A stretch of DNA of 64,000 nucleotides, from contig WBVU01000008.1 in assembly GCA_009192285.1 (NCBI GenBank), positions 806,001 through 870,000 of the forward strand. Reading direction: 5' to 3'. The DNA comes from Morchella semilibera (Eukaryota; Ascomycota; Pezizomycetes; Pezizales; Morchellaceae). Below the pieces are notes generated by a model. That model did no database searches. It saw only the letters and a program-made list of their open reading frames with translations, and had not been told where the DNA came from. This document shows, piece by piece, positions 797 to 41,857 of this stretch (positions within the stretch are counted from its first letter, which is position 1; every line of letters begins with the position of its first letter). The position numbers were made by a program, and so were the translations under genes.

Positions 797-1688
797 ATGT
801 CGTCGTCTTTGTTTGGTGCCCCACTACCCAACCGACAGCAGGCCTTTGGTGACCGTAAGTATAGACTCTGCTTCCCAGTCTACCCCAATAGACCTACTCT
901 AACCTAGACTCCGGATTCATGCAGAAGAGGACGACTCCCCTCCGCCCTCCAACTATTACCTATACCCCGCAGCCCCCAGCTTGTCCCTCCCCACTGACGT
1001 CCCCGCCCTCCACTCCATAATCAATACACTCCAAGCCCAGCTCCAAGCCTCCTCCACCGTCAACACCCACCTTGCCGCCACTGTCGCCCGTCTCCAAGCC
1101 GAGCAGGCAACATCAACTAGTTTCACTCCCAACACCTCCGTCCCTACCACCCCCACTCCTGCCACAGCCACCACGACCAACACCCCCGCCTCCGTCCCAC
1201 CCCCACCCCCAAACCACCCGCGGAATATCGAATACGGGCGGGGCGCCGGCTCTCCTGAAACCTTCAAGCGAATCACCGAGACCAACTGGCACGGCCGCCT
1301 TGGGCGCGCGCACATGGTGGACGTCGACGCCTTGCCCCCCGCCGCCCTGATGGAGCTCGATGGCCTCGTGCGGCGAAAGCTGCGCGGCCTGCTCCCCCGC
1401 GGCGCGCCATGCGTCCATTGGATCAATGTGGACGAGACCTTTAGCGGCCTCGCTGCCCTAGGACTCCGGCTAGAGAATAGGGACCGCTATATGTGTCAGA
1501 TACTGAGCGACAGCGCTTCGCTCACGGAGTGCACCACCAGGAGGGCTAGGAACCTCGCCGAGTATTATTATGCGAATGAGAAGTATACGCATCATGAGTA
1601 CATGCGGGGCTTTTTGATCGAGACGTTGGTGGAGCTTGGCAGGTATAGAGGGCTTTTTGATGATGAGGGGTTTCTGAGGGATGAGTAA
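797..1688 (+). CDS. NWHGRLGR-family gene G1, unknown function
   Basis: I do not recognise this family. The model is exon 797-854, a 70-bp intron (GTAAGT donor, CTAACC branch-like site, GCAG acceptor at 921-924) and exon 925-1688, giving 273 residues. The intron falls after the first base of a codon, as in the four paralogues. Exon 1 encodes a short unique N-terminus. Exon 2 has a predicted coiled-coil stretch (around LHSIINTLQAQLQAS), a Thr/Pro-rich low-complexity linker, then the conserved part from about residue 120: GRGAGSPE, NWHGRLGRAHMVDVDALPP, ALGLRLENRDRY and the terminal RYRGLFDDEGFLRDE. No signal peptide or membrane span is visible, so a cytosolic or nuclear protein is likely but unproven. 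Third positions in exon 2 are GC-rich until the last 150 bases. Confidence 0.8.
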
Positions 1689-1959
1689 TGCTGGAATGGG
1701 CATGTAACCATAATCTATCACTTGTAGGCACTGGGGAGATGGGCGCGTTTGAAAAAAAAATCAGGCATCTCATAAGTAGCCCTAACCCCGAGTGACTGTG
1801 GGCCGTTAAGGAATTGTTGTTGTTTGTGGTATGCTGGGCCACCGCATCTGGTAGCTTATACAATGCTATCTACTGTCTCTTGGTCTGGATCACAGGCTTG
1901 CATATTTACCCAAGGTATTCTCAAACCGTCAGAATCGGTAACTCTACCATGCTGTCGAG

Positions 1960-2266
1960 CGGTAATTAACCCCGAGGACTTTGGGCAATGGGAATTTCCA
2001 ACCTTCAACAACCATAAGTCCGCACTCACTCCTACTTATAGCCATTTCGCCGCCAAAAGACCCACTCTAGCCCCCCCGCTTGTGTGCAGATAGGGATGCA
2101 CCAGCAACCCGCCTTCGCAACCATCCCCGCCCCCCGCCAATCCCACCCCTGCATGGAGACCACACGTTCAGTGTCGCCTCCGGGCGGTGCTAGCTCGCCC
2201 CAGATCTCCGTGAGGATAGCCAAGACCGGTTGGCGCGGTCGTCTCGCCGCACGTATATGGGGGTAG
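1960..2266 (+). pseudogene. Truncated relic of the NWHGRLGR family (psi1)
   Basis: The stretch keeps the family order: a short first exon around FGQWEFPTF, an intron-like segment ending in TGCAG near 2090, and a second part ending KTGWRGRLAARIWG then a stop at 2264-2266. The last residues align with the family motif KTNWHGRLGR. The donor base pair is AT instead of GT, the reading frame upstream is interrupted, and everything downstream of the motif is missing. It is a close partner of the relic at 4180-4482, so the truncation probably predates duplication of the gene-plus-relic unit. Confidence 0.65.
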
Positions 2267-2637
2267 TACCAGCTAGGGGGAGGGGGGCCGGAGAGGCAGG
2301 GCGAAATGACCATGTAATCATATATTACAATGGTTCATTCTCTGTTTGTAGGCAATCGCGGTAACTACGGAGGAGTGATGAGACTGTCGTAGTGTTCTCT
2401 GCCTCTGAGCACAGTCAACGATAGTGCCTTCCGGTAAAGACATATGTCATAAACAGGTACAACAGGCATCCCTTAATGTGTTCCAATCCGTGATGTTAAA
2501 CATGTCTCGCAGTGTCGACCTTGTCCGCGCCGCGATGCGGACAGTCTAAACAAAGGGCTATGTAAAATGTATGAATTATGGATTAATAGATGTGTAACAA
2601 TAGACGAATACGGATGAGTCGAGTGATCGTACATGAT

Positions 2638-2700
2638 GCTGTCTTGTGATACCATCTCGGGTATTAACGGGACGCAAGGCATATAAAAAAAGCAAATACA
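2638..2700 (+). promoter_or_regulatory. Shared upstream block with TATA-like motif, gene G2
   Basis: A block beginning GCTGTCTTGTGATACC, containing GGGTATTAACGGGACGCAAG and ending in ATATAAAAAAAGC lies about 155-215 bases before the G2 start. Almost the same block precedes G3 at 4796-4858, and weaker copies lie at 40862-40912 (before G5) and 41968-42005. The A-rich TATA-like motif makes a core promoter likely. Confidence 0.5.
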
Positions 2701-2854
2701 CTCAAAGATCGTACGATTGATTACCCTACCACGACCTGGAATACTTTCGGTTCCTCCCTCTCGACACAGAATCAACTCTTAACTGCATCTCCAAAGGTCC
2801 TCTCCGCTTTAATACCATTCCCCTAACAGGGCTAGATATCCGAGGCACTCAAAT

Positions 2855-3938
2855 ATGAGTTATTGTGGTCCTCCTGGTCCTCCTGGTCTTCCTCCTGGTC
2901 TTCCTCCTGGTCTTCCTAGTCTTCCTAGCCTTCCTAGTCTTCCTCCTGGTCTTCCTCCTGGTCCTCCTCCTGGTCCTCCTCCTGGTCCTCCTCCTGGTCC
3001 TCCTCCTGCCCCTGTTCCTGGTCCACCTTCTGGTCCTGCTCCTGGTGCTCCTGCTCCTGGTGGTCCTTGTCCTTGTCCTTGTCCTGGCCCTGGTGGTGGT
3101 GGTGCGGGCTTTGGGTTATCCCCCATCCGTAAGTCCGGGACCTTCCCACCCGCTTCCCAAACCAAGATCCACATTAACCCCGCCTACAGTGGAGGGCACC
3201 ATCAGCGTGGCCGACCTAGCGAGTTTGATCGGACTCTTCTCCACGCTCCCCAGCGCCCCCCCCCAAACCACCACAACCACCGTCTCACCCCTCCCCACCG
3301 ACGTCGCCGCCCTCCAGTCCAGAATCGACACTCTCCAGGCCCAGCTTAGAGCTACTACCCACCTCGCCGCCTCCGTCGCCCGCCTCCAGGCTGAGCAGGC
3401 GGCCCCCACTCCTATAGCTCCCACCACGACCACCCCCACCCCCGTCCCATGTCTGCATCTAGACCACCCACGTACCATCGCCTCTGGACGTGGCGCCGCC
3501 TCGCCCGAGGTGTTCAAGCAGATGTGCAAGACCAACTGGCACGGCCGTCTTGGCCGCGCGCACATGGTGGACGTTGACGCCTTGCCCCCCGCCGCCCTGA
3601 TGGAGCTCGACGGCCTCGTGCGGCGGAAGCTGCGCGCCCTCTTCCCCCGCGGCGCGTCATGCACCTACTCTCTCAATGCGGACGAGACCTTTGGTGGTCT
3701 TGCTGTCCTGGGACTCCGGCTGGAGAACAGGGACCGCTATATGTGTCAGATACTGGCTGACAGTGCTTCGCTCATGGAGTGCACCACCAGGAGGGCGAGG
3801 AACCTCGCCGAGTATTATTATGCGAATGAGAAGTATACCCATAATGAGTACATGCGGGGTTTTTTGATCGAGACATTGGTGGAGCTGGGCAGATATAGAG
3901 GGCTTTTTGATGATGAGGGGTTTCTGAGGGACGAGTAG
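2855..3938 (+). CDS. NWHGRLGR-family gene G2 with collagen-like proline-rich first exon
   Basis: Exon 2855-3128, intron 3129-3189 (61 bp, GTAAGT to CTACAG) and exon 3190-3938 give 340 residues. Exon 1 (91 residues) is built almost wholly from Gly-Pro-Pro and Gly-Leu-Pro units encoded by a nine-base CCTCCTGGT-type minisatellite, ending in Cys-Pro and Gly-rich runs; no other family member has it. Exon 2 repeats the family plan: EGTISVADLASLIGL, a coiled coil (RIDTLQAQLRATTHLAASVA), a Thr/Pro linker, NWHGRLGRAHMVDVDALPP and the same RYRGLFDDEGFLRDE end as G1. The intron phase matches the paralogues, which supports the start chosen even though exon 1 is low complexity. Function unknown. Confidence 0.78.
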
Positions 3939-3967
3939 GAACGGGCACGTAATCATAATTTATCACT

Positions 3968-4130
3968 TGTAGGCACTGGGGGAGAAATCAGGCAAGAAAT
4001 AGCCCTAACCCTGGGAAACTGTCTTTTTTTTTTTCTTGTCTCATACTCACCTGAGCTACTGTCAGCTATTGGCTGTGGTATATTAAATTATCATATCTGG
4101 CAGCTATCTACTGTCTCTGAATCCCAATCA
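3968..4130. other. Region downstream of G2 shared with G1
   Basis: The sequence TATCACTTGTAGGCACTGGG follows the stop codons of both G1 (1718-1737) and G2 (3960-3979). It is followed in both by a CCCTAACCC telomere-like motif (1784 and 3993). After G2 a run of 12 T follows within 25 bases. It may be a conserved 3' untranslated region. Confidence 0.35.
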
Positions 4131-4179
4131 CAAACTTGCATATTTACTCAAGGTATTCTCAAACTGTCAGAATCGATAA

Positions 4180-4482
4180 TTCTACCATGCATGTCCGGCG
4201 GGAACCCGAGAGCTTTGGGCAATGGGAATTTCCAACCTTCCACAACCGTAAGTCCGCACCCACTAGTCGCTTCGCCGCCAAAGGATCCACTCTAACCCCC
4301 CGCTCATGTGTAGATAGGGATGCATGCACCAGCACCCCCGCCTTCGCGACCATCCCCGCCCCCCGTCCCACACCTGCATAGAAACCGCACGTCCAGCGCC
4401 GCCGCCTGCGGGCGGTCCTAGCTCGCTCCAGATGTCGAAGACCAGCTGGGGCGGTCGTCTCGGCCGCACGTATATGGGGTAA
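4180..4482 (+). pseudogene. Truncated relic of the NWHGRLGR family (psi2)
   Basis: A short exon starting MHVRREPESFGQWEFP ends in ACC|GTAAGT, and an intron-like segment ends TGTGTAG at about 4313. The spliced frame closes after about 21 more codons, but another frame shows QMSKTSWGGRLGRTYMG and then a stop, matching the conserved NWHGRLGR motif. Like psi1 it ends immediately after that motif. Splice signals are better kept than in psi1, so a short product cannot be ruled out. Confidence 0.6.
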
Positions 4483-4658
4483 TACTTGCTGCCTCTGAGC
4501 ATAGTCAACGATAGTGCCTAGGAGTAGTCTTCCGGTAGATACATATGTCATAAACAGGTACAAAAGGCATCTCTTAATGTATTCTACTCTGTGAAGCTTT
4601 ACAAGCCCCGCACCGCCTACCTTGCCCAAACTACGATAGAGACAGTCTAGCTGCCGTA

Positions 4659-4710
4659 GCCGCCATAGCCTAAAAGGCTGGATGCGAGTATGAAGTAAAC
4701 AAAAAAAAAA
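4659..4710 (+). mobile_element. Very short A-tailed retroposed insert, copy 1
   Basis: A 42-base segment (GCCGCCATAGCC ... GAAGTAAAC) plus ten A is flanked by the perfect 15-base direct repeat AGTCTAGCTGCCGTA at 4644-4658 and 4711-4725. The A-tail and long target duplication indicate target-primed reverse transcription, so this is either a tiny SINE or a severely 5'-truncated LINE 3' end. Confidence 0.75.
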
Positions 4711-4795
4711 AGTCTAGCTGCCGTAACCCAAGGGTTATATAAATGTATGAAATATGAATTAATAAATCAATATGTAGCAATAGAGACGATTATGA

Positions 4796-4858
4796 CGCTG
4801 TCTTGTGATACGATCGGGTATTAACGGGACGCAAGGCGTATAAAAAAAGCAAATACAC
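4796..4858 (+). promoter_or_regulatory. Shared upstream block with TATA-like motif, gene G3
   Basis: This is the second copy of the block described before G2: a TCTTGTGATACGATCGGGTA start, TTAACGGGACGCAAGG, then GTATAAAAAAAGC, about 170-230 bases before the G3 start. The conservation of sequence and spacing to a start codon supports a promoter role. Confidence 0.5.
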
Positions 4859-5027
4859 CCAAAGAACGATCAATCGGACCTCAGCCCTCTCATTACCCCA
4901 TCACGACCTGGAGTGCTTTCGCTCCCCGCCTCTCGACACAAAATCAACTCCTAACCGCATCTCCAAACGTCCTCTCCGCTTCAATACGCCTTCCCCTAAC
5001 ACAGCTGGATATCCGAGTAATTCAGAT

Positions 5028-5907
5028 ATGGCCGCATCCACTATACCGAGGCCTGGTCTAGGTAGTTGGTTAAACCCCGCCCGTAAGTCCGAGGCCTTGC
5101 CACCCGCTTCCCAAAACAAGCCCAGCTTTAACCCCGCCCTTAGATGCAGAAGGCATCGGCACGGCCGACCCAGTGAAGTCGGGCGGAGTCCCCTCCACCT
5201 CCCCCACCGTCCCTCCCCAAACCACCACAATCACCGTCTCACCCCTCCCCACCGACGTCGCCGCCCTCCAGTCCAGAATCGACACCCTCCAGGCCGAGCT
5301 TAGAGCTACTACCCACCTCGTCGCCTCCGTCGCCCGCCTCCAGGCCGAGCAGGCGACCCCCACTCCTATAGCTCCCACCACGACCACGACCACCCCCACC
5401 CCCACCCCCGTCCCATGCCTGCACCCAGACCACCCACGCACCATCGCCTCTGGACGTGGCGCCGCCTCGCCTGAGGTGTTCAAGCAGATGTGCAAGACCA
5501 ACTGGCACGGCCGTCTTGGGCGCGCGCACATGGCTGACGTCGATGCCTTGACCCCCGCCGCGCTAATGGAGCTCGACAGCCTCGTGAGGCGGAATCTGCA
5601 ATCCATCTTCCCTCACGGCGAAATGCACAGTACTACCATTCAACCGGACCACATCTTTGCATGTCTCGCTGCACTGGGGCTTCGGCTAGAGGATAGACCC
5701 CGGTATGTGGGTTTCCCGTTAGTGGGCGGTAATACCATCGTGGATGACAGCACCGACAGGAGAGGCAGGCAGCTTACGGGGTATTTCTATGCAAATCTAA
5801 GTTTCAAGAACTCGGGGTACTGGCATGGGGCTTTGTTGGAGACCTTGCTAGAGATAGCGAGGTATAGGGGGCTGTTTGATAATGTGGGATTTCTGAAGGA
5901 GGAGTAG
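5028..5907 (+). CDS. NWHGRLGR-family gene G3, unknown function
   Basis: Exon 5028-5082, intron 5083-5143 (61 bp, GTAAGT to CTTAG) and exon 5144-5907 give 272 residues. The N-terminus MAASTIPRPGLGSWLNPA is unique to this copy. Exon 2 has the coiled coil (RIDTLQAELRATTHLVASVA), a Thr/Pro linker lengthened by ACC-type repeats, ASGRGAASPEVF, KTNWHGRLGRAHMADVDALTP, LGLRLEDRPRY and an ending RYRGLFDNVGFLKEE. Its middle and C-terminal parts have diverged more from G1 and G2 than those two have from each other. The upstream promoter block and intron are nearly identical to those of G2, so the pair arose by a segmental duplication. Confidence 0.8.
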
Positions 5908-6555
5908 TGGTTCATGTAATTACAGTACCAGGTACCAAGGTATTTCCGTCAATAGGCTGGTAACAGAGTCGGGTAGTTTGAACACTAAGTCATGCAGCCA
6001 TTCGGGGTTCCGGGGGTTTTTAAGAATAAAGTACTAGCTCACTATTCTTTCTAGTTATTAATTTCACATGGCCGCTGATCACCCCCTAGCCCTCATACTG
6101 CATACTTAGTCATTAATAACGAAGTGCGGCTATAATATGCCATTTGTAGGCACCAGAGGGCAGTAGGGGCGCAATGGAGTATAAATGGGCAAATAAATAG
6201 ACTCTGATCTCATGAGTCGAGTGAGGTTTCCCATGTGCCGCTATCTGTATGCGCATGTGGAAATCCAATTGAAGTAAACCCTAACCCTGAGTGTAACTTG
6301 ATGTTTTTTTTTTGTTTACATCAGTAATAACTTGATGTTGTAAACTCCAAGTAAATAATTTATAGTGTTCAAAGTTAGCCGCGTATTTTAGCCGCATGTT
6401 TTCTTTTATCTATTAGATCGATGTGTGGAACCCCGCCAGCAAACAGAGATTAGCCAAATCGCTCTATTTATTTATTTATGATCTCCTTAAACTTCATAAA
6501 ATCGCCCTATTTAGACCTGATATGAACAATATCAAGTATCCTATATAACACTCCG
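5908..6555. other. Intergenic stretch downstream of G3
   Basis: No gene is seen. It holds a degenerate copy of the TTGTAGGCAC downstream motif (about 6144-6154), a telomere-like AACCCTAACCCT at 6277-6288 and a tiny retroposed insert at 6304-6327. Confidence 0.4.
6304..6327 (-). mobile_element. Very short A-tailed retroposed insert, copy 2
   Basis: A T-run followed by GTTTACATCAGTAA is flanked by the 12-base repeat TAACTTGATGTT (6294-6305 and 6328-6339, overlapping the T-run by two bases). On the minus strand this reads TTACTGATGTAAAC plus an A-tail, the last 14 bases of the same family as the insert at 4659-4710. It is the most extreme 5' truncation in the window. Confidence 0.65.
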
Positions 6556-7142
6556 TCAGGGTATACTCTGAGGCATGGTGCACCACACCTCCCGCAAGAA
6601 AGTCAAACCAGGTGTATCAATGATCCTCCGTTCGAGAGCCAACTCAGGAACCTTCGTACAGGTCCCCTGCGGCGACACCTCGCTCGCCAACAGAAAACTC
6701 CCTGGTTGAGTCTCGACTCGGTGCCATCCTGAAGTAATTCTCCCAAACAGAAAGAAAGTTGGATCCCTAACAGTGGTGAACTCGCAAGAGGGATCCATCT
6801 CATAAATATATCTTCTGACACGTGGTGGGGAGGACGGTGGTGGGGCATCGGCCAATCACTTGACCTCCGCGGCCAAGCGAGTATTCTCGTCCCCCAGCCG
6901 TGAATTCTCAGCAGTAAGACGCGCAAGTTCCTCCCGGGTGTTTTCTAAATACAATCCCACAGTCTCTTCCGTCAACCTTGCGACGTCGACCGAGTTGTTT
7001 CCGCCACTGGGACCTGCTGCAGGGAAGAAATTAAAATCACACTGCGTACAAAAAGGAAAGAAAGAAAGAAACTCCAACGAAACTCATCGATAGAGATCAA
7101 AGGGTGAATGTCATGGCCCTTACCCAGTGTTTGTCTAGTCAT
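6556..7142 (-). CDS. Small coiled-coil protein; frame continues past a TGA
   Basis: Exon 1 is 7142-7124 (MTRQTL), the intron is 7123-7017 (107 bp, GTAAGG to CTGCAG) and exon 2 starts at 7016; phases match. The first product ends at a TGA at 6858-6856 after about 58 residues and is mainly a Leu/Glu/Arg-rich coiled coil (ENTREELARLTAENSRL). The same frame stays open after the TGA for 99 codons to 6556, with RRYIYEMDPSCEF and TFFLFGRITSGWH, which look like real protein rather than chance. Either the gene has been broken by one stop, or the TGA is read through, or a further intron that I could not identify removes it. I do not recognise the family. Confidence 0.45.
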
Positions 7143-7598
7143 CCCGCGTAAATAGCTGATGAGTATAGGGAAGGAGTGAGAATATGTGATCGCTCGTCCG
7201 TCCTTGAAGGGTTGATTCCGTGCTGTGAGGTGCACTGGGTGTGGGAGGAGAGGGGGGGCGGGTGGGAGGTAGAGAAATCGAAGGTATATTTGTCCTATCT
7301 TTAATTACACAATGGTGACGACATATAGCTATCTTAGTCAGTAACACTTGGGGAAACGCCAAGTCTTTAGCATCTCCGCGATCAGATGTCCCGCTGTAGC
7401 CAACGTACCATCTCGAGAAAAAGGATGGATTTGTCAGGCAATCTGAATTCGGTGTTTTCGGGAAACTAGTCTATTCTCTCTGTGCCAACCTACTGCCACC
7501 GCATGCATACCTCTAATCCCAGCTTTGGAACCCACTACTTAGAAGAGTCTTCGGAATTCACAGCAGACTAGAAACCCTAACCCTGACAAGCCCTGTTC
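7143..7598. other. Intergenic stretch with telomere-like motif
   Basis: No gene is supported. AAACCCTAACCCTGA lies at 7572-7586, just beside the retroposed insert at 7599-7714. Confidence 0.35.
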
Positions 7599-10195: not shown

Positions 10196-10804
10196 ATGTC
10201 CACGCCAACTCCTGTAATTCCTGAACCCCGACTCCCTCTTGAGATCCTTCTCGCCATCGCCGAGCACCTCCCCATCCGCACCCTCTCCGCCTTCTCCCGC
10301 ACATCCCACACCCTCCACAACCTCCTAACCCCCCTAGTCGACGCCTGCTTCGCCCGCAGCGCGCCCTGGATCCTCCCTTGGGCCGTCCGCACCAACCGTC
10401 CCCCGCTACTGTTACGCGCACTAAGCGTCGCCCCCGCCCCGCGACGGGGCGACGCCCAGGAGCTCATCCAGGGCGCCATAGCCGCCGGCCACACAGACCT
10501 ACTACGAATCCTAGTGGACCATGGGGTCACACCGGGCGAAGGCAACTTGAGCTACCCACTGATATTGGCAATTGAAACGGCCAATGTGGAGATCACAAGC
10601 ATACTCCTGGGCGCCGGGGCGAGGCTCTATGGGCCCACTCTAGACCGTCGGCCGTGGACCCCGGCAGATGCCGCGCCGGAGGAGCGCAGGAGGGAGGTTG
10701 ACAGGTTGTTGAAGGTGTATGGTATGCAGTATTGGCGGCAGGAGCCGCTGGCTGCCGCGCAACCCGTGACGGGGCCACCGCCGGGGTGGAATGGTTGCAT
10801 GTAG
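10196..10804 (+). CDS. F-box/ankyrin-repeat protein
   Basis: A single-exon frame of 202 residues. Residues about 12-50 are F-box-like (LPLEILLAIAEHLPIRTLSA), the part that would bind SKP1 in an SCF ubiquitin ligase. It is followed by ankyrin-like repeats, the clearest around AIAAGHTDLLRILVDHGVTP and AIETANVEITSILLGAGARL, which would bind the substrate. The ATG at 10196 follows CCACC and starts just before the F-box, so I prefer it to upstream codons. With only about two to three ankyrin units it is short for such proteins. It faces a related gene at 13374-12500. Codon third positions are strongly C/G-biased, unlike the flanks. Family call is firm; the partner and target are unknown. Confidence 0.75.
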   Translation: MSTPTPVIPEPRLPLEILLAIAEHLPIRTLSAFSRTSHTLHNLLTPLVDACFARSAPWILPWAVRTNRPPLLLRALSVAPAPRRGDAQELIQGAIAAGHTDLLRILVDHGVTPGEGNLSYPLILAIETANVEITSILLGAGARLYGPTLDRRPWTPADAAPEERRREVDRLLKVYGMQYWRQEPLAAAQPVTGPPPGWNGCM

Positions 10805-12499: not shown

Positions 12500-13374
12500 C
12501 TACACATCACCCCTCAACATCGCTACCTGGAGAGAGGACTGGGAATACCGGTTAGGTTCATCGACATCTGCTCCCGCCTCCAGCAGCAGATTCAGCATTT
12601 CCATATTTTCCCCACGCTGCTCGCAGCAGACATGCAGCGGGCGCATCCCTGAGCGTCCTGGTTTCTCGTTGACGTCTGCCTTATGCTTTAGCAGCAACTT
12701 CACCGTGTCCACACACCCAAAGTGTACTGCCCAGGTCAGAGCAGTGCGGCGATAGAGCCTGAGCCACTGGAGATGGTATCCGCGCTCGACAAATGGCGGC
12801 AACAGCCACCGCGCGTGAAACATCGCGAAACGGATAGGCTCGAAGAGTACCATTCCCCAATATGTGCCAGGTGGCCTCAAAACCGCCCCGCGGGCAAGCA
12901 GCGCCTCGATGGTCGCAAGATCGAAAGAACGGGTGGCAACATCGAGCAGCGTATGTAGCATGGTTGAGCTCGAATGGCGGAAATAGGGACGCCAAACATA
13001 GTGTGCCGGCAGGGCGTGTTCGTCGAGGCGGTGGCTTTCGACTTACATGCTCTCGTGAGGTGCTTTAACCCTGGCTTTGCACCGGCGGCGACGGCTACCC
13101 GTAGTTTTGCGGTGTTGTTTTGGAGACAAGCGGCGGTCAGGACCGCGTCCTTCTGCGCGATGAGCAAGGAGTGGAGACTGGGTCCCGGGAAATTGAAGAG
13201 ATAGCGACAGGCCCTCATAAGATGAGAGAGATCCTGCAAATCGAGAGGCTGGACGATGTCGAGGATCAGCTCGGGGGGGAGGGCAAGTAGACGGCAAGAT
13301 CTGACTGGTCGGGGGCTAGCCACTGCGAGTAAAGATGCCGGTGGCGCCATAGTAATGTCACTCTGTTTCTCCAA
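12500..13374 (-). pseudogene. F-box/ankyrin-repeat gene with a broken frame
   Basis: Reading begins at 13374 with an N-terminus carrying an F-box-like segment (LPPELILDIVQPLDLQDLS) and the start of an ankyrin array (DAVLTAACLQNNTAKLRVA). A good donor, GTAAGT, starts at 13046, but the only nearby acceptor (TTCGAG at about 12971) keeps the wrong frame. The ankyrin repeats resume in another frame from about 12961 to 12500, with TALTWAVHFGCVDTVKLLL and MLNLLLEAGADVDEPN, ending in a normal stop. So a one-base shift, or an unusual splice, separates the halves. It is a paralogue of the gene at 10196-10804 and convergent with it. Confidence 0.6.
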
Positions 13375-14410
13375 TAGTCGTTAGGGAGTGGTTTGGAAAG
13401 CAGATAAGGGTAATTGGGTGTTGGGTCCGGTCATGTCGCGGGGAGTATGGTTGGGGACACCTGTAACCGGAATTGATTTCCGAGGATCACTTTCCTAATC
13501 GGGTAGGTCACAGATATACCCTGACCTGCAGATGCGACCTGCAGGTCTGTAGGTCGATCTTCGGTCACTGCTTGCTGAGGGCCCCTTTACCGTTACTCTA
13601 GTAAATGTTACCATATTAGCAAAGCCCTAATTACTTTCTCGGAATAGGAGGTCAAGTGGCGGGTATGTACTTCCAGCAGGGCTTGTTGCACGTTGGTAGG
13701 GTCAGGGTCCAGCCTCCTCTCGTCAGAATTCCCCTTCTCGGTGGAGCCCTGAGAGGAATATCGGTTCATGCACGGTCCCGCACCCCCAAGACGCGAGAAC
13801 TGGACATACCCTGAGTTGCGCAGTCTCCCAAGTGGGAGGGGTTTCTGGCTTGTGCTATCCACCCCGGCCTGCCAAGAGCAATGTCGACTTGGTCTGTCCA
13901 TGCTGGCATGACCCGCCCTACAAGGAAGGAACTAAACTTAGATGGGGAACCTATGATCTGATAAGGGAGGTAAGGGGATCTGTTAGTAAAGCCACAAAAA
14001 ATTTCTCCCTAGGGGATACCGGGGGTACCAACACCACCTGCTAAACTACATTTAGTTTAGATCTGGCCAATCCCTGTTTCTAATTTTGAGCTCAGGTTTT
14101 GAGCTCTTGGCGAAATTCCCACACAAAAGATATCGCCAAGAACTCAATATTTAGGTTCAGAGGTTGTTGGCTAAGTCGCTCTAATGCATCGCTCGCTCGT
14201 AGTTGGACGTGCCAAATGCCATAAAGACTGAGACGAGGTGGAGCGCGATGATTTTATCCAGTGACCCCATATGTCCTGTCTTGTACATACTACCTGTCAA
14301 TGGTCATTTGAGGGGCTTAACTGCGCGTGCATAAGAAAGAAGGAATTAATTTGTGAGACATCTAATGGTCGGATCCCTGCCTAATGGGGACGATACAAAA
14401 GCCTAGCCTT
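13375..14410. other. Intergenic stretch
   Basis: No supported gene. A short partly repeated ACCTGCAGATGCG/ACCTGCAGGTCTG stretch lies near 13525-13550. Confidence 0.35.
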
Positions 14411-17597: not shown

Positions 17598-18230
17598 TGT
17601 CCCGGCGTCTTGGCATCTGTCCCGACAGTCCGGTGAGTGATGCATGGTTATGATTGTTGTGGTAATGTTAAGCGAGAAGCGGGGATGCGAGTTGGAGGGT
17701 GTCGTAATTAGGTTCTAGGAGGTTCGATGGCGTGATGGATTGGTAATGTAGAATAGCGGAGATGGTGGGGAGGATTACGAGGTGTGGTAGCGACGGGTTT
17801 CTATGAGGTTCTATGAGTGAAAGTATGAGTCATAGCGGATTAGTGGAGGAGGTGTGTTAAATAGCGGGGATAGATGTTTTTCTTAGTTCTTTCTTTCTTT
17901 TCTCCCTGTCTCGTCTTCCTGTTATTTCGGTACATAGGAATCTACTCCTATTTCTAAGCCATAGCCTCTCGTACCACAGACTTGGTCCTCTCACAAGAGG
18001 AAGCTCATAGTATCTATCATCGTTCTCGTTGAGGTCCATCTGGTCCTCACCTTTCCTGCCCTGTGCTCTTGTGCTCTCGCCCTTGCCTCTGCCTTCGCCT
18101 GTGCCTGTGCTTGGGCCTGGCTGGCGTCGCCTTTGTCTTCGTCAGTTCCCTCGTCACGTAGGCTGTGCTCCTCGGGACCTTCTGCGTCATCATTGTCATC
18201 TTCCTCTTTGCGTCGGGTTGCTCCGTCACA
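17598..18230 (+). repeat. Solo LTR, family LTR-A, copy B
   Basis: A 633-bp LTR starting TGTCCCGGCG and ending CCGTCACA, flanked by AGCAC (17593-17597 and 18231-18235). It is a second insertion into the same hAT gene, in the opposite orientation to copy A. Confidence 0.88.
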
Positions 18231-24571: not shown

Positions 24572-25997
24572 ATATATTTTATATATAATCTGAGTATATA
24601 AATAACAGCATAACGCTCTTGTAGAAGCTTTCTACTATGTCAAATAGTAAAGTTAGGTTGTGGAAATATATATATTTACGGTAGCAGCAACCTATAGGCT
24701 CATAGCTCAAGAACCGTATATCGTATCAACAAATAGATACTGGGAGATGATTCTGTGGGTAAAATAGACTTATAATTTATATAGTCTGGAACTCTAATGT
24801 ATTGTTGCTGCTCCGTGCAATCCAGGTATGGTTTGTTGAAATATATATATTTGTATAACAGCGTGGAGCATACTTAGTGATGTTGCGGGAAAAAGGATTA
24901 GTCAGAGGTTTTCTACGACGTTCTATGAGGTTCTGTAGCAGGGATTCTATGAGTCACCGTTGGATATTTCCTTGGGGTTATTTCCTTGGGGTTCTATGGG
25001 ATTCTATGGTATGAGTCAGCGAAGGAATTTTAGGGCTATATATAGGGAACTTCCCCCCTTACTTATAGGGTTTCTCTTTCTTTCCTTCTTCTTCACGCAA
25101 CCTTCTTGTCAACTAGGCAATACAATCTTCAGGACTTCGAGTATACTCTTTTAGTTTCCGCTTTGCCCCTTAGTTCTAGTGACCTAATACTCTCTGCCTC
25201 GCTTCTGCTCTCTGCTTTACCCCGTCCCGCCTTGCCCTGCTCCGCTTTGGTGTTATACCTTGGTAGTCTCGACCCCGTCCTCGCTTCACTCCGTGATAAT
25301 TTGCGGTTACAGTATCTATTAAGCTCATAGCTCAACAACCGTTCATCGCTTCTACAAACGGTTGCCAGGAGGTGATTCTACGCATAAAATAGACCCTTAA
25401 TATATACGGTCTGGTACTCTAATCTATTGTTGTTGCCCTACGCGATACATGTATGGTTTGTTGAAATATATATATTTGCGGTTACAGCATCTATTAGGCT
25501 CATAGCTCAACAACCATTGATCGCTTCTACAAACAAACATTGGGAGGTGATTCTACGCATAAAATAGATCTTTAAGTAATGTAGTCTGGTGCTCTAATAT
25601 ATTGTTGTTGCCCCGCGCGATACAGGTATGGTTTGTTGAAATATGTATATTTGCGGTTACAGCAGCCATTAAGCATATAGCTCAACAACTGTTGATCGTA
25701 TCCATAAACGGATGCCAGGAGGTGATTCTACGTATTGAATAGACCTTTAAACAGTATGAACTAATATTCCTATCTGTAGTTCTTGCCCTAACTGAGCTAT
25801 GTATGGTTTCTGAAAATATGTATTTTTACGGTTGCAGCATCCATTAAGCTTACAGCTCTGCAACCATGTATTGTATCAACAAACGGACACTGGGAGGTGA
25901 TTCCACGCATCAAATAGACCCTTAAATGATATAGTTCAGAATCTTTATCTATCTTTATTCATTTGAACGATACAGTCATGGTTGGTGAAAACACATA
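24572..25997. repeat. Tandem repeat, unit about 176 bp, left part
   Basis: Successive units share TTTGCGGTTACAGCA, AGCTCAACAACC, GGAGGTGATTCTACGCA, AAATAGACC and GGTATGGTTTGTTGAAATAT. The TTGCGG landmark recurs at about 25302, 25475, 25651 and 25825, spacing 173-176 bp; an earlier, more divergent unit begins near 24660. The array is cut by LTR-D (24854-25298) and by the gypsy element at 25998 and resumes at 38682. AT-rich monomers of this length resemble a satellite. Confidence 0.75.
24854..25298 (+). repeat. Solo LTR, family LTR-D
   Basis: A 445-bp insertion starting TATAACAGCG and ending ACTCCGTGATA, flanked by ATTTG (24849-24853 and 25299-25303). It has a TATATATAG box followed by a pyrimidine-rich stretch. 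It lies within the 176-bp tandem repeat. Confidence 0.72.
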
Positions 25998-33992: not shown

Positions 33993-35244
33993 CACTAGTT
34001 GAACAGGTGACCCCCAAGCCGGCGTTAAAAGGTCAGCCCCTTTGGTAAATATCGGCAAACCAAAGGGGCTAGTCCCGCCACCCATTTTTTTTCTTTCATC
34101 CACCGCCGTATCCGAAGACCGAATGTCTGAGGACAATCTCGTTGTCGCGTGCATGATTACCCAGGACTCCGGAAAGCCTATTGCTACCCACGCGCTCATA
34201 GATACAGGAGCGTCCGGGTATGCTTTCATCGACCAGGACTTTGCATTACGGCACAATATATCTCTGGTACCGTTAAAAACCTCTCGACTTCTGGAAGTGA
34301 TCGATGGTCGCCTGATTGAATCAGGCAAAATTACTCACATTGCCAAACTTTCGATGGACATCAATGGACACCAGGAAATTGCTCCCTTTTTTGTCACCAA
34401 GCTGGGTCACTATCCACTGGTCATGGGAATCCCTTGGATGCGACGCCATGATTTGGCTATCCGTCCTAAGACGAACAAGGTCATTTTCGACTCTGACTTC
34501 TGTATCTAGAACTGCTCCTTGTCTCATGCTTTGGTCACCGCCAAAGGCATCTCTGTTTCGTTTCCTGACGCACCAGCCATACAGATCTGCGCAATCGGAG
34601 CTGTACCCTTTGTAGGTCTTGCGCGACGGAAGCAAAATCAATTGTTTTGTGCCTCTCTGAAGGCAATTGACGAAGCCCTAGCTGGGAAAGTCAATATTGA
34701 TTGACTGTCTCATGTGCCCCAGGATCTTCGGGAATTCATGACGTTATTTAAGGAATCAAATGCCGTTGCACTGCCGCTACACCGCCCACATGATCTGAAA
34801 ATAGTCTTGCAGGATGTAAAGGCACCTCCGTTTGGTCCCCTCTATGGAATGTCTAGGGTGGAGTTACAGGCTCTTCGAGACTACATCACGGAGAAACTCT
34901 CAAAGGGGTTTATTCGTTATTCCGAATCTCCCGCTGGCGCTCCCGTACTCTTTGTTAAGAAATCCGATGGCTCTCTTCGACTATGCGTGGATTACAGGAA
35001 ACTTAATGAGATTACGGTCAAGAATCGCCACCCCCTACCCTTGATTCCCGAGACACTGTCCCGCCTCTCCAAGGCCAAGTACTATACCAAGTTGGATCTT
35101 CGTTGGGGATATCACCAAATTCGGATCCAGGAGGGCGACGAATGGAAGACCGCTTTCAGGACCCGCTATGGTCACTTCGAATACAACGTTATGCCATTTG
35201 GACTTACCAATGCCCCTGCCGCATTTCAACACTGGATTAACGAC

Positions 35245-35733
35245 TCTAACGGGGCGGGGTCGGGTCGAGGGCTTAAGCAAGGTAGATCCAGGGACGAGGA
35301 CAGGGACAGGGTCGGCTCAGGAGATACCCGAGGCGAGACAGGTTCAGGTTCAGGTTCAGGTTCAGGTTCAGGGACGAGGCGAAGACAGAAGGGCCGAAGC
35401 CAGAGTAATATATTGCTAACAGAAAGAAGAAGTTGCCTAGAGAGGCAGAAACATAGGAAAGAACGAACACTATATATACAACTACCCCATCACACCGCTG
35501 ACGCATAACCATAGAATCTCATAGAACCTCCCCCACTTCCGTACCACCCATACTATTCCCAATACCCATACTTCTATCCCGATACTACCCCTTCCTTCCT
35601 AGCGCTTACATTCTATCGCCCGAGCTCCTTCCTAATCCATCATTCTACTTCCGACATCGACCGATACTATCCAACAACCCTGTTCCGAAGACGTCTTGGC
35701 GGGAGGCGAGGTACAGGAGGCGAAGCCGTGATA
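35245..35733 (-). repeat. Solo LTR, family LTR-B, copy 2
   Basis: A 489-bp LTR, reverse orientation to the copy at 22281, flanked by ACGAC (35240-35244 and 35734-35738). It lies within the reverse transcriptase region of the outer gypsy element. A GGTTCA microsatellite of about five units lies at 35340-35370. Confidence 0.87.
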
Positions 35734-38681
35734 ACGACCTTCTGCGCCCCTTTCTCGATTCTTTTGCTACGGCCTATCTCGACGACGTCCTGATATACTC
35801 AGAGTCCCTGGAAGAACATAAACAGCACGTCAAGGAAATTCTTAAAGTGTTTCAGATCCATAGTGTACACCTCAAGCCAGAGGAATGCGAATTCTACGTC
35901 CAACAGACTAAGTATCTGGGACTCATTATCACTCCGGAAGGGATTAAGATGGACCCCAGTAATGTATCTACGATTAAGGACTGGGAAACACCCACCAAGC
36001 TTCGGGAGGTTCAGGAATTTTTAGGCTTTGCCAACTTTTACCGACGGTTTATTTATGCGTACTCCAGAGTTGTGGCACCGCTCACCGCCCTGACCAAGAA
36101 AAACGTAAAGTTTGAATGGTCTCAAAAAGCGGAGGATGCATTTCAGAAACTCAAAGACGCGTTTACTTCGGCTCATATTTTGGCTCACTTCAATTTCGAG
36201 AAAGAAGTTATAGTGGAAACCGATGCCTCTGATTATGTCTCCGCAGGTATTATGTCCCAGTACGACGACAATGGAATTCTTCACCCAGTAGCGTTCTTCT
36301 CCAAGAAACACTCTCCGGCAGAATGCAACTATGAGATCTACGATAAAGAACTACTCGCAGTCATCAGGAGTTTCGAAGAATGGCGTCCGCACTTGGAAGG
36401 CTCTCTCTACCCTGTTAAAGTTCTAAGTGATCACAGGAACCTGGAATATTTCATGTCAACTAAGTTACTTAATCGCCGCCAGACTCGGTGGGCAGAGTTT
36501 CTATCACAGTTTAATTTCGCTATCCAGTTCAGGCCAGGCAAACAAGGAGGCAAACCAGACGTACTTACCAGGAGATCAGGAGACCTCCCTAAGGAAGGGG
36601 ATGAACTCCTTATGCATCAGTCGCAGATTGTGTTGAAGCAGGAAAATCTGAGTCCTGAAACTAAGCTAAGTTTGTTGGCGGGTTCTTTGACAAATGAACC
36701 CGCTGAAGGAATGTCCACTGTGAAAGAGTTATTGACTCAAGCTTACCAAATTGATAGCTTCCCCGATCAAGTTCTCATCATGTTGCGCAACGGTACCAAA
36801 CATTCCAAGAAGATATCACTAGCGGAATGTACCGAGACCGAAGATGGCTTTTTATTGTACAGGAATGTAATCTATGTACCAGAGTCCAATGATCTCCAGC
36901 TTTGATTGCTACAGGAACACCACGATAAACCCTCCACTGGTCATCCAGGTCGTGCCAAGACTCTTGAACTCCTCAGTCGTAGTTACTACTGGCCAAACAT
37001 GAGGAAGTACGTTGATCGCTATGTGCAGAACTGCAACGTCTGTTCCCATAGCAAGACTTCTCGTAATGCGCTACAGGGCATTCTCCGACCTCTCGCAGTA
37101 CCTAAAGGCCCCTGGACCGATGTGTCAATGGACTTCGTAACAGGACTTCCGGACAGCAATGGCTTCAATGCCATTTTGGTAGTTGTGGACCGACTCACTA
37201 AGATGCGCCATTTCGTACCATGCACTGAAGAAGCTAATGCCAGAGACGTCGCCAATATGTATCTCGACTCAGTCTGGAAACTTCATGGACTTCCAGAAAC
37301 CATAGTCTCAGATTGCGGTACTCAGTTTACGGCCGAGTTTTGGAAAACCCTATGCGATCGTTTGGAAATAGCTCCTCGCTATAGTACCGCCTTTCATCCA
37401 CAGACTGACGGACAAACGGAAAGGATTAATGCAATTATGGAGCAATATCTCAGGGCCTATGTTTCGTATCAACAGGACGATTGGATACAATATCTGTCAA
37501 TGGCGGAATTCGCAACCAATAACCATGTATCCGAGACTACCAAGATGTCACCGTTTCAAGCCAATTACGGGCGAAGTCCTCGCATGACCTTTGCACCCTT
37601 GCAACACGGGAAGACCACGAACGAAGATCAGGCCAACGGTATGGCTAGGACAATGGCACAGATCTATGACTTTCTTCGCAATGAGATGGCCCGGGCTCAA
37701 AAGATACACGAAGACGCGGCTAATAAGAATCGAATCCCCGCTCCTCGATACTCAGTGGGTGATGAAGTCTTTCTCTCAACCAAGAATATTAAAACTAAGC
37801 GACCCTCGAAGAAACTCGATTGGAAACGCATTGGTCCCTTTGTTGTTAAGAGAATGGTTAGCCCCTATGCCTACGAACTTGATCTCCCGGCTTCGATGAA
37901 GATTCATCCCGTCTTTCACGTTTCGCTATTGTCCCTTGCAGCAAGCAACCCAGTTCCCGGCCAACAACAAGTCCCGCCACCACCGGTAGAAATTGAAGGA
38001 GAATAGGAATGGGAGGTGGATCAAGTTATGGATTCTCGGCGACGCTACGGACGATTAGAGTACTTGGTAAAGTATGTTGGTTATAACGAACCCTCATGGC
38101 AACCTGCCTCGGACCTCGATCACGCCTCTGATCTCGTTAGGGATTTTCATACCAGGTATCCACGGAAGCCTAGGCCTATCAGGAGTTAGGCCTGGAGGAG
38201 GACCTAATCTATCACGGCGTACTACGGACTACGGGGGAGGAAGGATATTTAAGACTGGGTTAGGATTCGGGGATTCTCTTTTGGGTTCTTTGGGTTTCTA
38301 TGGGTTTCCGTTACACGGAGTATGAGTCCATGACGGACATGGGTGGAATAGTATATAATATATTCGCTATGGGTTCTTTTCTTCCTTTCTTCCTTCTTTT
38401 TCTCTTCTACTTCGTCTTCCTTTACAAACCCTCCTCATATAGGTCTTTGTTTTATCTTTAGTCTTGTCGCGTCTTGTCCTCAGAAATATACGATCTATCT
38501 ATAAAAGTATCTTGCTTGGCATACCACCAAGAACCACGTGACCTCTTCGCCTCGCCATAGTCGCTCCCGCCCATAGTACTCGCCCATAGTCCCTGTTCTC
38601 GTGCTCGTCTCCGTCTTCGCTCCCCGTTTCGCCTTGGTTGTGAACCTTGGCACTCTGTTTCGTTGTCTCCGTAACAACATA

Positions 38682-38870
38682 GTAGTTTCGAGTACCATAT
38701 TCTTTAAGCTTATAGCTCAACAACCATACATTTTATCCACAAACGGATGCCAGGAGGTGATTCTACGCATGGAATAGGCCTTAAACAATATATTCTGGTG
38801 TCTTTCTTTGTTGTTGTTGTGGACATGAACAATATAGGTTTGGTCCGCTAGGTTTGGTACAATATGCTGC
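38682..38870. repeat. Tandem repeat, unit about 176 bp, right part
   Basis: TTATAGCTCAACAACCATAC, ACGGATGCCAGGAGGTGATT and CTACGCATGGAATAGGCC match the monomers at 24572-25997, showing the array continues past the gypsy insertion. It fades after about one unit. Confidence 0.7.
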
Positions 38871-39385
38871 TTCATAGGATGTCACTCGGTTTATCCCTGC
38901 ATAACAACCCTGCACCTATCTCTTGGCGTAAAATTTCCCCTCCCCCTCGCCTAAACTGAGGTATCTTTACCCTCTTACTACACACTTCCATGTAAATTAT
39001 TTCTTGAATTAAGGCCATGAGTCCCTTATTCTAATCATAAATATTTAAAGTACGGCCTATATTTACTAATATCTTGTGTTTTGGTTGACAAGAAAGCTTT
39101 AGTGTTTGTTAACTTTTACCGACCCCGATATCGTGTCGCCCACCATATAACCTACCTGCCCTGAACTTTGGATGGGAGAGCAGGAGCGGAGTTACACGAG
39201 AGAGGCAAATATGGTGTAATCAGCCACTCGGCGCCACCCAGGGCGATTACCCCTCTTTTGCCAACATCTTCACCATAGGTGACCGCTCTCTCTATATAGG
39301 AACCAGCCCGACCTTTTATATTATACAATACTGTCTCTGCCTCTGAACCTATACACAACACCCTCCCATTCAAGGTCCTTCTACC
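38871..39385. other. Intergenic stretch before G4
   Basis: No gene is seen. CTCTATATAGGAACC at about 39289-39303, some 90 bases before the G4 start, is a plausible TATA box. Confidence 0.4.
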
Positions 39386-40277
39386 ATGGGCGAGTCCGTT
39401 TGCTATGGCTCCGAGGGTCCTGGGGACATGGGGCGAGCCGTGAGCTACATGTGTAAGTCCACACTCCTACTTGCCGCTAATCCATCACACAAACTAGTTC
39501 TAATCTGCTCTTATAGATAGGGAATTCATTCCCGTGAGTGTGCAAGGCCTGGCGGATGCGGCGACCTACGCCACTCTACCCCCCATCTTTATCCAGCCCG
39601 CCGCCACCACCGACCCCCGCCTGTCCAACCAGTCCGGACCCACAACGGCCCCCGACGCTCCCGTACCCTTAAACGCCACCAACATCTACTCTGTAGTCAA
39701 CAATCTCCAGGCCGAGGTCAGAGCCATCGCTAGATTCCAAGCGGAGCATGTACCCCTCACCCCTACCATCACCACCGCAACAACAACGACATCCACTGCC
39801 CCCCTCCCTCGTACCGTCGCCTCAGGACGCGGCGCCGCCTCTCCTGAGGTCTTTCAGGAGATGATTAAAACTAACTGGCATGGCCGTCTCGGCCGCACGC
39901 ACATGGCCGACGTTGACGGCCTCCCCGATCCTGCGCTAACCGAGCTCGACTGCCTCCTGCGGCGAAAGCTGCAAGCCATCTTCCCTCGTATCGGCGACTT
40001 CTCCGAGCCGGATGCAGACACTATTTTTGCCAGTCTTGCGGCGCTGGGCCTGCGCATGGAGGATAGAGGCGGGTATGCAGATGTGCTTGTGGTGGATGAT
40101 AGCACACTACCCAAGGAAGCCACGGCCAGGAGGGCGAAGAACTTTGTGGCGTATTATTATACGTATGGCAGGAGTAAGTATCGCGAATACTGGCTGGGGT
40201 TCGTGCTGGAGACGCTGTTGGAGCTAGCGAGATATAGGGGTTTGATTGATGATGAGGGCTCTTTGAGGGTCGGGTAG
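39386..40277 (+). CDS. NWHGRLGR-family gene G4, unknown function
   Basis: Exon 39386-39452, intron 39453-39516 (64 bp, GTAAGT to TTATAG) and exon 39517-40277 give 275 residues. The N-terminus MGESVCYGSEGPGDMGRAVS is unique. Exon 2 has a coiled-coil-prone stretch (VNNLQAEVRAIARFQAEH), a Thr-rich linker, ASGRGAASPEVF, KTNWHGRLGRTHMADVDGLP, LGLRMEDRGGY and an ending RYRGLIDDEGSLRVG that departs from the acidic DE end of the others. It and G5 share RTHM after the core motif, and so form one subgroup against the AHM of G1-G3. Function unknown. Confidence 0.8.
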
Positions 40278-41073
40278 TTGGGCGAACCAAAGTAAGAATC
40301 GGGTATTAAAACGCCACTTGGTCAATCATTTATTAAGATTTTTGCCCAGTTTTCGACAGATTGTGCTTGGTTGGAGTTGATCGGCGGCATCCTAATCCTG
40401 GCGCAAGTGTGTAAATGAGAGGGGGTGGGGGTGGGGGGTACTCAGAAATGGGAATAAAATCAAATCATAGTGTATCTCTCGTACACCCAATACCACAATA
40501 CCACAATGAAGTAATACTAGGGGTTGAACAAAGTATTTACTTGCACTGATAATGCAGAGAGAAGCGGTCCTAAAGGGCCCTCTCAAACAAGCTTCTAGTT
40601 AACTATCCTTTGTGATCTTGCCCCTACTAGACATCCTTAGAAAAAATATATCTTCTAGTGTCACCGTGATGTGGATGGTGGAATATGGTGGAGAAACACC
40701 TTTCCTCTTCTTTATGCAGCGGACCTGTCATGCTTGTCTCTGGTAGAGTATTTTTCTTATCTCCTTCGTTGGCATTTCCTATTTGGTCTCATATCTCCGT
40801 CCTGTTTAGTTTTAGGAGTGGGGCATACTCTAAACCTCAGGAAAACTGTTGATCAACTGTGTCGCCGTCTTGTGTTACCATCGGCTACTTACGGGATACA
40901 AACACATAGATTTCAGGCATCCAATTCAGATATCGGATTTTCGAATCCACATCTACCCCGCACTTCCACCACCCAGACATAATACTGTGTGTCCCCACCC
41001 CGCCCTTTCAAAAGCCCCAACTGCACGACTGACTCTGTTTTCAACAACCCGCATCACTTCCGTAGATAGAAAC
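40278..41073. other. Spacer between G4 and G5
   Basis: No gene is supported. A degenerate copy of the family promoter block (GCCGTCTTGTGTTACCATCG ... ACGGGATACAAACACAT) lies at about 40862-40912, roughly 165-210 bases before G5, matching its spacing in G2 and G3. Confidence 0.45.
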
Positions 41074-41857
41074 ATGTACGGTACGTCTTCACTTCTGCAT
41101 CTAGTTCTACCACATCATACCCGCTCTAACCCTACATGTAGCTACCAGGGTAAGGGACTTTGACGCGTTGCAAACGGGGGAGTATTCCGCTCCACGCCAG
41201 CCATCGATCCCCACCAATACAAAAACACCCGCCCCCCCCCTCCCCACCGACATCGCCGCACCCCACCGCTTAATCAACACTCCCCAAACCGAGCTCAGAG
41301 CTACCGCTAGTCCCAAAGCCGCACAGGCACCACTCACTCCTACCACCACCACTACCACAACTACCACCACCACCACCACCACCCCCCTCCCATCTACAGC
41401 CGCCTCCGGAAGAGGTGCCGGCTCTCCCGAGGTCTTTCGGGAGATGATCAAGGTCAACTGGCACGGCCGTCTTGGCCGCACGCACATGGTCGACGTTGAC
41501 AGGCTCCCTGCTGCAGTACTCAGCGAGCTCGACTGTTTCCTGCGGCGGAAGATTCACGCAATTTACCCCCGCGGCCGCGATAGGTCAGACCCTGACGCGG
41601 ACACGATCTTTGCGGGCCTTGTGACTCTGGGCCTGCGGCTTGAAGACAGAGGCGCGTATGCGGACCTACCTGTGGTATATGATGCTAATGTGTTGCGTAC
41701 ATTGCCTACGATCAAGAGGATGAGGAACAATGCGGCGTATTATACTACCCATGAGAAGTATGGTGACTACTGGCGGGGTTCCGCAGTCGAGACCTTGGTG
41801 GAGCTGGCGAGGTATCGGGGGTTGTTTGATGATGAGGGATATCTGAAGGAGGAGTAG
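41074..41857 (+). CDS. NWHGRLGR-family gene G5 with a seven-base first exon
   Basis: The best model is exon 41074-41080 (ATGTACG), intron 41081-41141 (61 bp, GTACGT, CTCTAAC branch site, ATGTAG) and exon 41142-41857, giving 240 residues. The intron keeps the phase and place seen in the other four copies, which is why I accept so short an exon. Exon 2 has a His/Thr/Pro linker with an ACC-repeat run, ASGRGAGSPEVF, VNWHGRLGRTHMVDVDRLP, LGLRLEDRGAY and the tail RYRGLFDDEGYLKEE. The coiled coil is reduced compared with G2. Function unknown. Confidence 0.75.

What the first reader, a model, noticed from the sequence alone, without database searches (positions are those of the whole stretch)
797..41857. 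Unrecognised five-member gene family: one conserved body, five unrelated first exons
G1-G5 share a phase-1 intron at one position and an exon 2 with a coiled coil, a variable Thr/Pro linker, an invariant NWHGRLGR core and a conserved RYRG(L/F) tail. Their first exons encode wholly different sequences, from two residues to a 91-residue collagen-like run. Such a plan suggests exchange of N-terminal modules onto a fixed body. No known domain is recognised, so this may be a new family.
Basis: partly seen in the sequence, partly recalled or inferred. Interest (0 to 1): 0.75.

Follow-up and report, generated by a model that had tools for sequence, protein, structure and literature searches.

The report
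Morel gene family with recombining core
The window holds five members of a larger, uncharacterised, probably morel gene family whose differing front ends look mostly like one fast-changing exon, and one gene is a hybrid made when two neighbours recombined inside their most conserved stretch.

Summary
The five genes are real. They share a phase-1 intron at one position, a heptad segment (broken by prolines in G5), a Thr/Pro linker, an identical NWHGRLGR core and a YRGL tail. They are not a five-member family: the same assembly has 18 alignable exon-2 loci plus damaged copies. Its statistics fit Morchella crassipes. The first exons are not five unrelated modules. Eight of 17 modelled first exons have an early FG motif (1.3 expected), on both sides of the body tree. 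The 5' ends of G1, G4 and G5 match nothing else in the assembly except contig C21, a redundant copy. G2's "collagen-like" run is a 12-nt repeat in an exon whose flank and intron align with G3's. Exchange did happen, but at the core: G2 is G3-type up to NWHGRLGR and G1-type after it (325 of 368 informative sites; 0 of 2000 permutations), and the core-to-core unit is duplicated. One unequal crossover inside the core explains the array. The body is under purifying selection. No convincing family or fold match was found; function is inferred only.

The parts
797..1688 (+). G1: exon 1 797-854 (MSSSLFGAPLPNRQQAFGD), intron 855-924, exon 2 925-1688
   Evidence: phase-1 GTAAGT...CAG
1949..2248 (+). 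truncated relic of a family member after G1 (exon-1-like part with damaged donor ATAAGT, then a ...KTGWRGRL remnant)
   Evidence: sequence; D9, D11 pair this region with 4103-4264; tblastn 2117-2248
2855..3938 (+). G2: exon 1 2855-3128 (91 codons, 12-nt repeat), intron 3129-3189, exon 2 3190-3938; hybrid of G3-type 5' half and G1-type 3' half
3534..3553 (+). core DNA (AACTGGCACGGCCGTCTTGG) holding the inferred crossover point of G2 (best breakpoint 3548)
4187..4476 (+). truncated relic after G2; exon-1-like MHVRREPESFGQWEFPTFHN resembles exon 1 of member o on C5 (SFGQWGFPTNYN)
   Evidence: (sequence, translated by eye); (tblastn 4429-4476)
1284..3533 (+). duplicated unit A (G1 core to G2 core)
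   Evidence: aligned with unit B, 83% identity over 1966 aligned positions (alignment includes short flanks)
3534..5499 (+). duplicated unit B (G2 core to G3 core)
5028..5907 (+). G3: exon 1 5028-5082, intron 5083-5143 (or to 5149), exon 2 to 5907
39386..40277 (+). G4: exon 1 39386-39452, intron 39453-39516, exon 2 39517-40277
41074..41857 (+). G5: exon 1 41074-41080 (MY plus one base), intron 41081-41141, exon 2 41142-41857

Best explanation
This is a tandemly arrayed, birth-and-death gene family of a fungus, very probably a morel (assembly statistics match Morchella crassipes). SHOWN: the modelled full-length members encode proteins of about 240-340 residues without a clear signal or membrane segment. 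The plan is a short leader in exon 1, a phase-1 intron, a heptad-repeat segment in most members, a Thr/Pro linker of variable length (an ACC repeat in G5), and a C-terminal body of about 155 residues under purifying selection. SHOWN by sequence comparison: G2 joins a G3-type 5' half to a G1-type 3' half within the core DNA, and the segment from one core to the next is duplicated. INFERRED: a single unequal crossover between the cores of ancestral G1 and G3 made the G1-G2-G3 array, so the core DNA acts as a recombination hinge that can put one paralogue's promoter, leader and coiled coil on another's C-terminal body. INFERRED: most first exons descend from one leader (M-[SA]-x-FG...) that has diverged by substitution, shortening and repeat growth. 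INFERRED and weak: the proteins are intracellular oligomers whose helical body binds a conserved partner, and paralogue turnover diversifies the disordered front and its regulation. A role in recognition or defence is only a guess, at about 0.15.
For: Family size. Gene models: (17 of 19 loci modelled have a phase-1 solution; p and c do not). Hybrid: 190 of 211 informative sites up to 3548 agree with G3 and 135 of 157 after it with G1; 0 of 2000 permutations reach this. Core-to-core duplication including intergenic DNA and relic, 83% identity. Tree: G1+G2 bodies 100/100, G3 elsewhere. Exon 1: early FG in 8 of 17, 0 of 20000 shuffles as high, on both sides of the tree; m and r, paired in the body tree (83/85) and on different contigs, have similar exon 1 (0 of 400 shuffles). 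5' ends not shared with other genes. Selection: dN/dS 0.19 for the G1-G2 C half, 0.13-0.63 among the body pairs listed (those with dS below 1.2); 1.07 for the G2-G3 N half. Highest 19-residue mean hydropathy 1.70 in 15 models, of which o and u are cut at their stops.
Against: Exon-1 similarity does not track body similarity (Mantel rho 0.08, P 0.29), nor does intron similarity (P 0.43); only the 5' flank does (150 nt P 0.002; 250 nt P 0.013). Only 4 of 91 exon-1 peptide pairs reach P<=0.01 (0.9 expected), so G3, G5, d, l, q, u and others could have leaders of other origin. The FG and TTC[GT]A[AC]C-ATG motifs were chosen after looking at the same sequences. The deep tree is weakly supported: 1 of 15 inner branches passes the tool's 95/80 mark and the main split has 90/78, rooted at the midpoint for drawing only. 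Silent divergence is unequal between the two halves of the duplication (dS 0.28 versus 0.09), so later conversion or two events are possible. No second clear hybrid. No expression data. Structure models are poor (mean pLDDT 58 and 55).
Confidence: 0.6

Rival explanations
1. Exon shuffling through the phase-1 intron: unrelated first exons were exchanged onto a fixed exon 2.
For: The shared phase-1 intron in 17 of 19 modelled loci would allow it; many leaders show no similarity to each other; exon-1 similarity does not follow body similarity.
Against: The only demonstrable exchange has its breakpoint in exon 2, about 360 nt past the intron. 5' ends of G1, G4 and G5 match no other place in the assembly apart from redundant contig C21. 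FG-type leaders occur on both sides of the body tree. G2 and G3 introns are homologous.
Confidence: 0.12
2. Mobile-element or domesticated gag-like gene: coiled coil, linker and helical body carried to several sites by transposition.
For: Dispersed clusters on two contigs with fragments on two more; transposon ORFs in the window and a Gypsy-like polyprotein next to one cluster (read by eye).
Against: Copies are mostly in head-to-tail arrays; 5' flanks of four window members are not shared between clusters; the intron is kept, unlike a retrocopy; no gag or transposase among the Pfam matches of 17 members up to E=1; no confirmed relative in IMG/VR contigs.
Confidence: 0.08
3. Non-self recognition, defence or selfish (killer-type) gene family whose arrays generate diversity.
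For: Tandem arrays, damaged copies, a crossover hybrid, repeat growth in leader and linker, weak constraint in the G2/G3 N half.
Against: No NACHT, NB-ARC, HET or patatin domain among the Pfam matches of 17 members up to E=1; one weak PADLOC match only (DruD, E 0.017, 1 of 5 members); no polymorphism data, because C21 looks like a redundant copy of C22 rather than a second haplotype.
Confidence: 0.15
4. Decaying ORFs without function.
For: Damaged members: c, n, o, u, fragments on C7 and C14, two relics in the window.
Against: dN/dS well below 1 across listed body pairs; 13 members with intact two-exon models by my reading.
Confidence: 0.05

Closest known systems
Birth-and-death tandem gene families (as a kind; recalled)
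   Same: Arrays, pseudogenes, paralogue recombination
   Different: The protein body gave no convincing match in the libraries searched; the crossover sits in the most conserved codons
Collagen-like proteins (considered for G2 exon 1)
   Same: Rich in Gly and Pro
   Different: Four-residue period, at most 3 consecutive G-X-Y triplets
Fungal NLR/het-type allorecognition arrays (recalled)
   Same: Tandem paralogues with recombination and repeat variation
   Different: No NACHT, NB-ARC or HET domain among Pfam matches; small coiled-coil protein
S. pombe wtf killer genes (recalled)
   Same: Multi-copy, recombining, repeat-expanding, lineage-specific
   Different: wtf proteins are membrane proteins with alternative starts (recalled); the 15 models here show no clear membrane segment

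Membership tests
Birth-and-death tandem gene family | head-to-tail paralogues in clusters | tested here: met
   C22 near 231-236, 807-812, 845-848 and 1561-1566 kb, C5 near 208-216 kb
Birth-and-death tandem gene family | pseudogenes and fragments among intact members | tested here: met
Birth-and-death tandem gene family | recombination between paralogues | tested here: met
   G2 hybrid; no second clear case
Collagen | long uninterrupted G-X-Y triplets | tested here: not met
   longest run 3 triplets
Exon-shuffled modular family | exchange boundaries at introns | tested here: not met
   for the one exchange found: breakpoint 3548 in exon 2, intron ends at 3189
NLR/het allorecognition protein | NACHT, NB-ARC or HET domain | tested here: not met
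   Pfam scan of 17 members, nothing of this kind up to E=1
NLR/het allorecognition protein | between-strain polymorphism and incompatibility phenotype | not testable with these tools
   one strain only; C21 copy looks redundant
Retrotransposon gag or domesticated transposon gene | gag or transposase domain | tested here: not met
   Pfam scan of 17 members
Retrotransposon gag or domesticated transposon gene | shared element ends at dispersed copies | tested here: inconclusive
   5' flanks of G1, G3, G4, G5 not shared between clusters; 3' ends not searched

The most novel reading that the evidence does not exclude
The near-invariant NWHGRLGR DNA works as a built-in recombination hinge: selection keeps it nearly identical between paralogues, which lets unequal crossover repeatedly re-pair regulatory and coiled-coil fronts with C-terminal bodies, giving morels a combinatorial set of intracellular recognition proteins of a new domain type.
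Probability: 0.1. Interest if true: 0.75.

Novelty: new member of a known kind. Interest (0 to 1): 0.36.

Why it matters
It is a fungal gene family without a recognised domain in the libraries searched, with an unusually clear record of how one crossover in a conserved stretch produces a hybrid gene with a new promoter and front end, and of how a short repeat can make a homologous exon look unrelated. It warns against reading different first exons as module exchange without checking flanks and introns. If the bodies prove to be recognition proteins, it would give morels a candidate self/non-self system to test.

Tried and rejected
The second model was not searched. No fungal proteome collection was at hand, so the family's spread among fungi is untested. 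Text search for the string NWHGRLG: 0 papers. Other paper searches listed no paper that I recognised as describing this family; most subscription journals are not held. Papers seen: PMC7014384 (abstract, passages, part 1 of the Results, section 3.1); PMC8329594, PMC13208314 and PMC6164635 (passages only).

Rejected: a repeat-induced mutation or allelic-divergence story for the C21 copies of G4/G5. The stops there come with 34 gap openings and 1 mismatch in 4.9 kb, while of the four other C21/C22 stretches compared three are identical and one is 99.5% identical, so C21 is taken as a redundant, partly poorer copy. Rejected: shared neighbour genes as a clue. Flanks of three other clusters, about 4 kb each, hold no ORF of 120 aa (C5), a kinase-like ORF (C22 at 226-230 kb; by eye) and a Gypsy-like polyprotein (C22 at 1.57 Mb; by eye), not the F-box/ankyrin genes seen here. 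Corrected: the first Mantel test used a truncated body for member r (there: 150-nt flank P 0.011, exon 1 P 0.16, intron P 0.49); it was repeated.

Dropped rows: a has no modelled exon 1; c, n, o and u were left out of A4 (17 rows); p, a, c, n and u were left out of the Mantel test (16 genes); c, n and u were left out of the body alignment, codon and tree scripts (18 rows); G2, G5 and l were left out of the exon-1 pair test (14 peptides); C21 copies were left out of my family counts and.
Full report
OBSERVATION. The core motif DNA occurs five times in the window, against 0.11 expected. The five exon-2 proteins align with 45-76% identity to G1. Splice modelling puts a phase-1 GT-AG intron at one place in all five, with first exons of 19, 91, 18, 22 and 2 full codons.

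SIZE OF THE FAMILY. The window lies at C22:806001-870000 of an assembly of 56,756,124 bases in 23 contigs. Protein and DNA searches of that assembly find family members on C22 near 231-236, 807-812, 845-848, 870-871 and 1561-1566 kb, and on C5 near 186-188 and 208-216 kb, with fragments on C7 and C14. C21 carries the same loci. Of five C21/C22 stretches compared, three are identical, one is 99.5% identical, and one differs by 34 gap openings and 1 mismatch in 4.9 kb. I therefore count C21 as redundant. Eighteen exon-2 loci can be aligned. By my reading, thirteen (G1-G5, j, k, l, m, q, r, s, t) have intact two-exon models with a canonical acceptor at the homologous place. Members b and d would need another acceptor, a has no clear exon 1, p fits only a phase-0 model, o has a stop, u has a frame break, and c and n are remnants.

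ORGANISM. Size, 23 scaffolds, a first contig that reaches at least 7.26 Mb and short introns (52-128 nt in the models) fit the published Morchella crassipes assembly (56.7 Mb, 23 scaffolds, longest 7.34 Mb, median intron 63 bp; PMC7014384, abstract, passages, part 1 of the Results and section 3.1 seen). A fragment of ribosomal protein uL3 from this genome scores best against the entries 7r81, 8oo0 and 7olc, which I recall as Neurospora and Chaetomium. The identification is likely, not proven. That paper reports expanded and contracted families without annotation, but what I saw does not tell whether this one is among them.

FIRST EXONS. Among 17 modelled first exons, eight start M-x(0-7)-FG (b, G1, r, m, t, s, k, o), against 1.3 expected, and no shuffle of 20000 reached eight. 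Eight (b, G1, m, s, G4, j, k, o) have TTC[GT]A[AC]C directly before the ATG, and these are the only eight occurrences in the 4250 upstream bases examined. Both motifs were chosen after looking at these sequences. FG leaders occur on both sides of the main split of the body tree (t, s, k; and b, m, r, G1, o; split support 90/78, midpoint root), so the simplest reading is an ancestral FG leader. Against this, only 4 of 91 peptide pairs are similar at P<=0.01 (0.9 expected), and exon-1 similarity does not follow body similarity (P 0.29), nor does intron similarity (P 0.43), whereas 5' flank similarity does (P 0.002 for 150 nt, 0.013 for 250 nt). Several leaders, including those of G3 and G5, remain unplaced.

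G2'S LEADER. G2 and G3 have homologous sequence before exon 1 (86% over 96 nt) and around the intron (82% over 71 nt), and the last 28 nt of their exon 1 agree at 17 positions, the best of all ungapped placements of G3's stretch in G2's exon 1. G2's exon 1 holds a 12-nt repeat array. The peptide has a four-residue period and at most three G-X-Y triplets in a row. I read it as a repeat expansion, not a collagen module.

THE HYBRID. In a three-way alignment of G1, G2 and G3, 368 sites tell which neighbour G2 follows. A single breakpoint at 3548 explains 325 of them: up to it 190 of 211 follow G3, after it 135 of 157 follow G1, and 0 of 2000 permutations do as well. Position 3548 is inside the core motif DNA (3534-3553). 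Aligning the stretch from G1's core to G2's core with that from G2's core to G3's core shows one duplicated unit that includes the C half, 3' flank, truncated relic, spacer, promoter, exon 1, intron and N half, 83% identical over 1966 aligned positions, with gaps in the relic-spacer region and in exon 1. The block at the first core's upstream edge is only 67% identical. An unequal crossover between the cores of an ancestral G1 and an ancestral G3 gives exactly this order: N1-C1, N3-C1, N3-C3. The dS values of the two halves differ (0.28 and 0.09), so later conversion is possible. The body tree groups G1 and G2 at 100/100, its only branch above the 95/80 mark, and puts G3 elsewhere. No second hybrid of comparable clarity was found. 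Members of one cluster do not group in the body tree (11 label changes, 11.9 in shuffles, as low in 59 of 200), so the clusters are old or have exchanged members.

SELECTION AND PROTEIN PLAN. Body pairs with dS below 1.2 have dN/dS of 0.13 to 0.63, so the bodies appear maintained. The N half of G2/G3 shows 1.07. Heptad hydrophobicity is better than shuffles at P<0.05 in 13 of 18 members (not b, d, G5, l, t); b, d and l carry a one-residue deletion in the segment, and s and k a duplicated segment. The highest 19-residue mean hydropathy is 1.70 in 15 models, of which o and u are cut at their stops. Two low-confidence models show six and seven helices. No convincing family or fold match was found.

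NO SIGN OF BORROWED MODULES. DNA searches with promoter, exon 1 and intron of G1, G4 and G5 find only themselves and their C21 copies; G3's finds only itself, G2 and the C21 copies. A DNA search would miss old exchanges.

MECHANISM AND FUNCTION. The birth of G2 by a core-to-core crossover is well supported. Function is not shown. I think most likely these are intracellular coiled-coil proteins with a helical partner-binding body. A recognition or defence role is possible (about 0.15) because of turnover and recombination, but nothing here tests it.

VERDICT. Real genes, a larger family than reported, leaders that look mostly diverged rather than exchanged, and one clear hybrid with its breakpoint in the core. 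Moderate interest.

Noticed in passing
window 6279-6290, 7575-7586; near-matches 1780, 4003; C22 231507, 232645, 1560795, 1564515; C5 186040, 189147: A telomere-like motif CCCTAACCCTGA lies in and beside these clusters: 8 exact copies in 99,686 bp of family loci and window, 0.66 expected from the genome rate of 375 in 56.76 Mb. Some copies may be shared by duplication. Genome-wide it is about 20 times commoner than its reversed control (375 versus 18). It recalls TRF/Tbf1-type sites (recalled).
   Followed up: partly
contigs C21 and C22 of the assembly: Matching stretches on two contigs (of five compared, three identical and one 99.5%), with C21 carrying many small indels around 842801-847730: probable assembly redundancy with a low-quality patch.
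   Followed up: partly
window 10196-10801 (+), 12503-13380 (-): F-box and ankyrin matches beside the G1-G3 array: one gene with both, and one whose F-box-like and ankyrin parts lie in two frames.
   Followed up: no
window 17965-19809, 34003-38006, 56482-60040: hAT-type, Gypsy-type and tnp2/Plavaka-type transposon ORFs between and beyond the arrays (parts of the last two by eye).
   Followed up: no
window 25299-25925: A tandem array with a 175-nt unit, 3.6 copies.
   Followed up: no
members s and k (C5:212362-213093, C22:1561505-1562254): Both carry a duplicated heptad segment (LQAELNATTSVN.HLAA.VAR), so the coiled coil has doubled in these two members.
   Followed up: no
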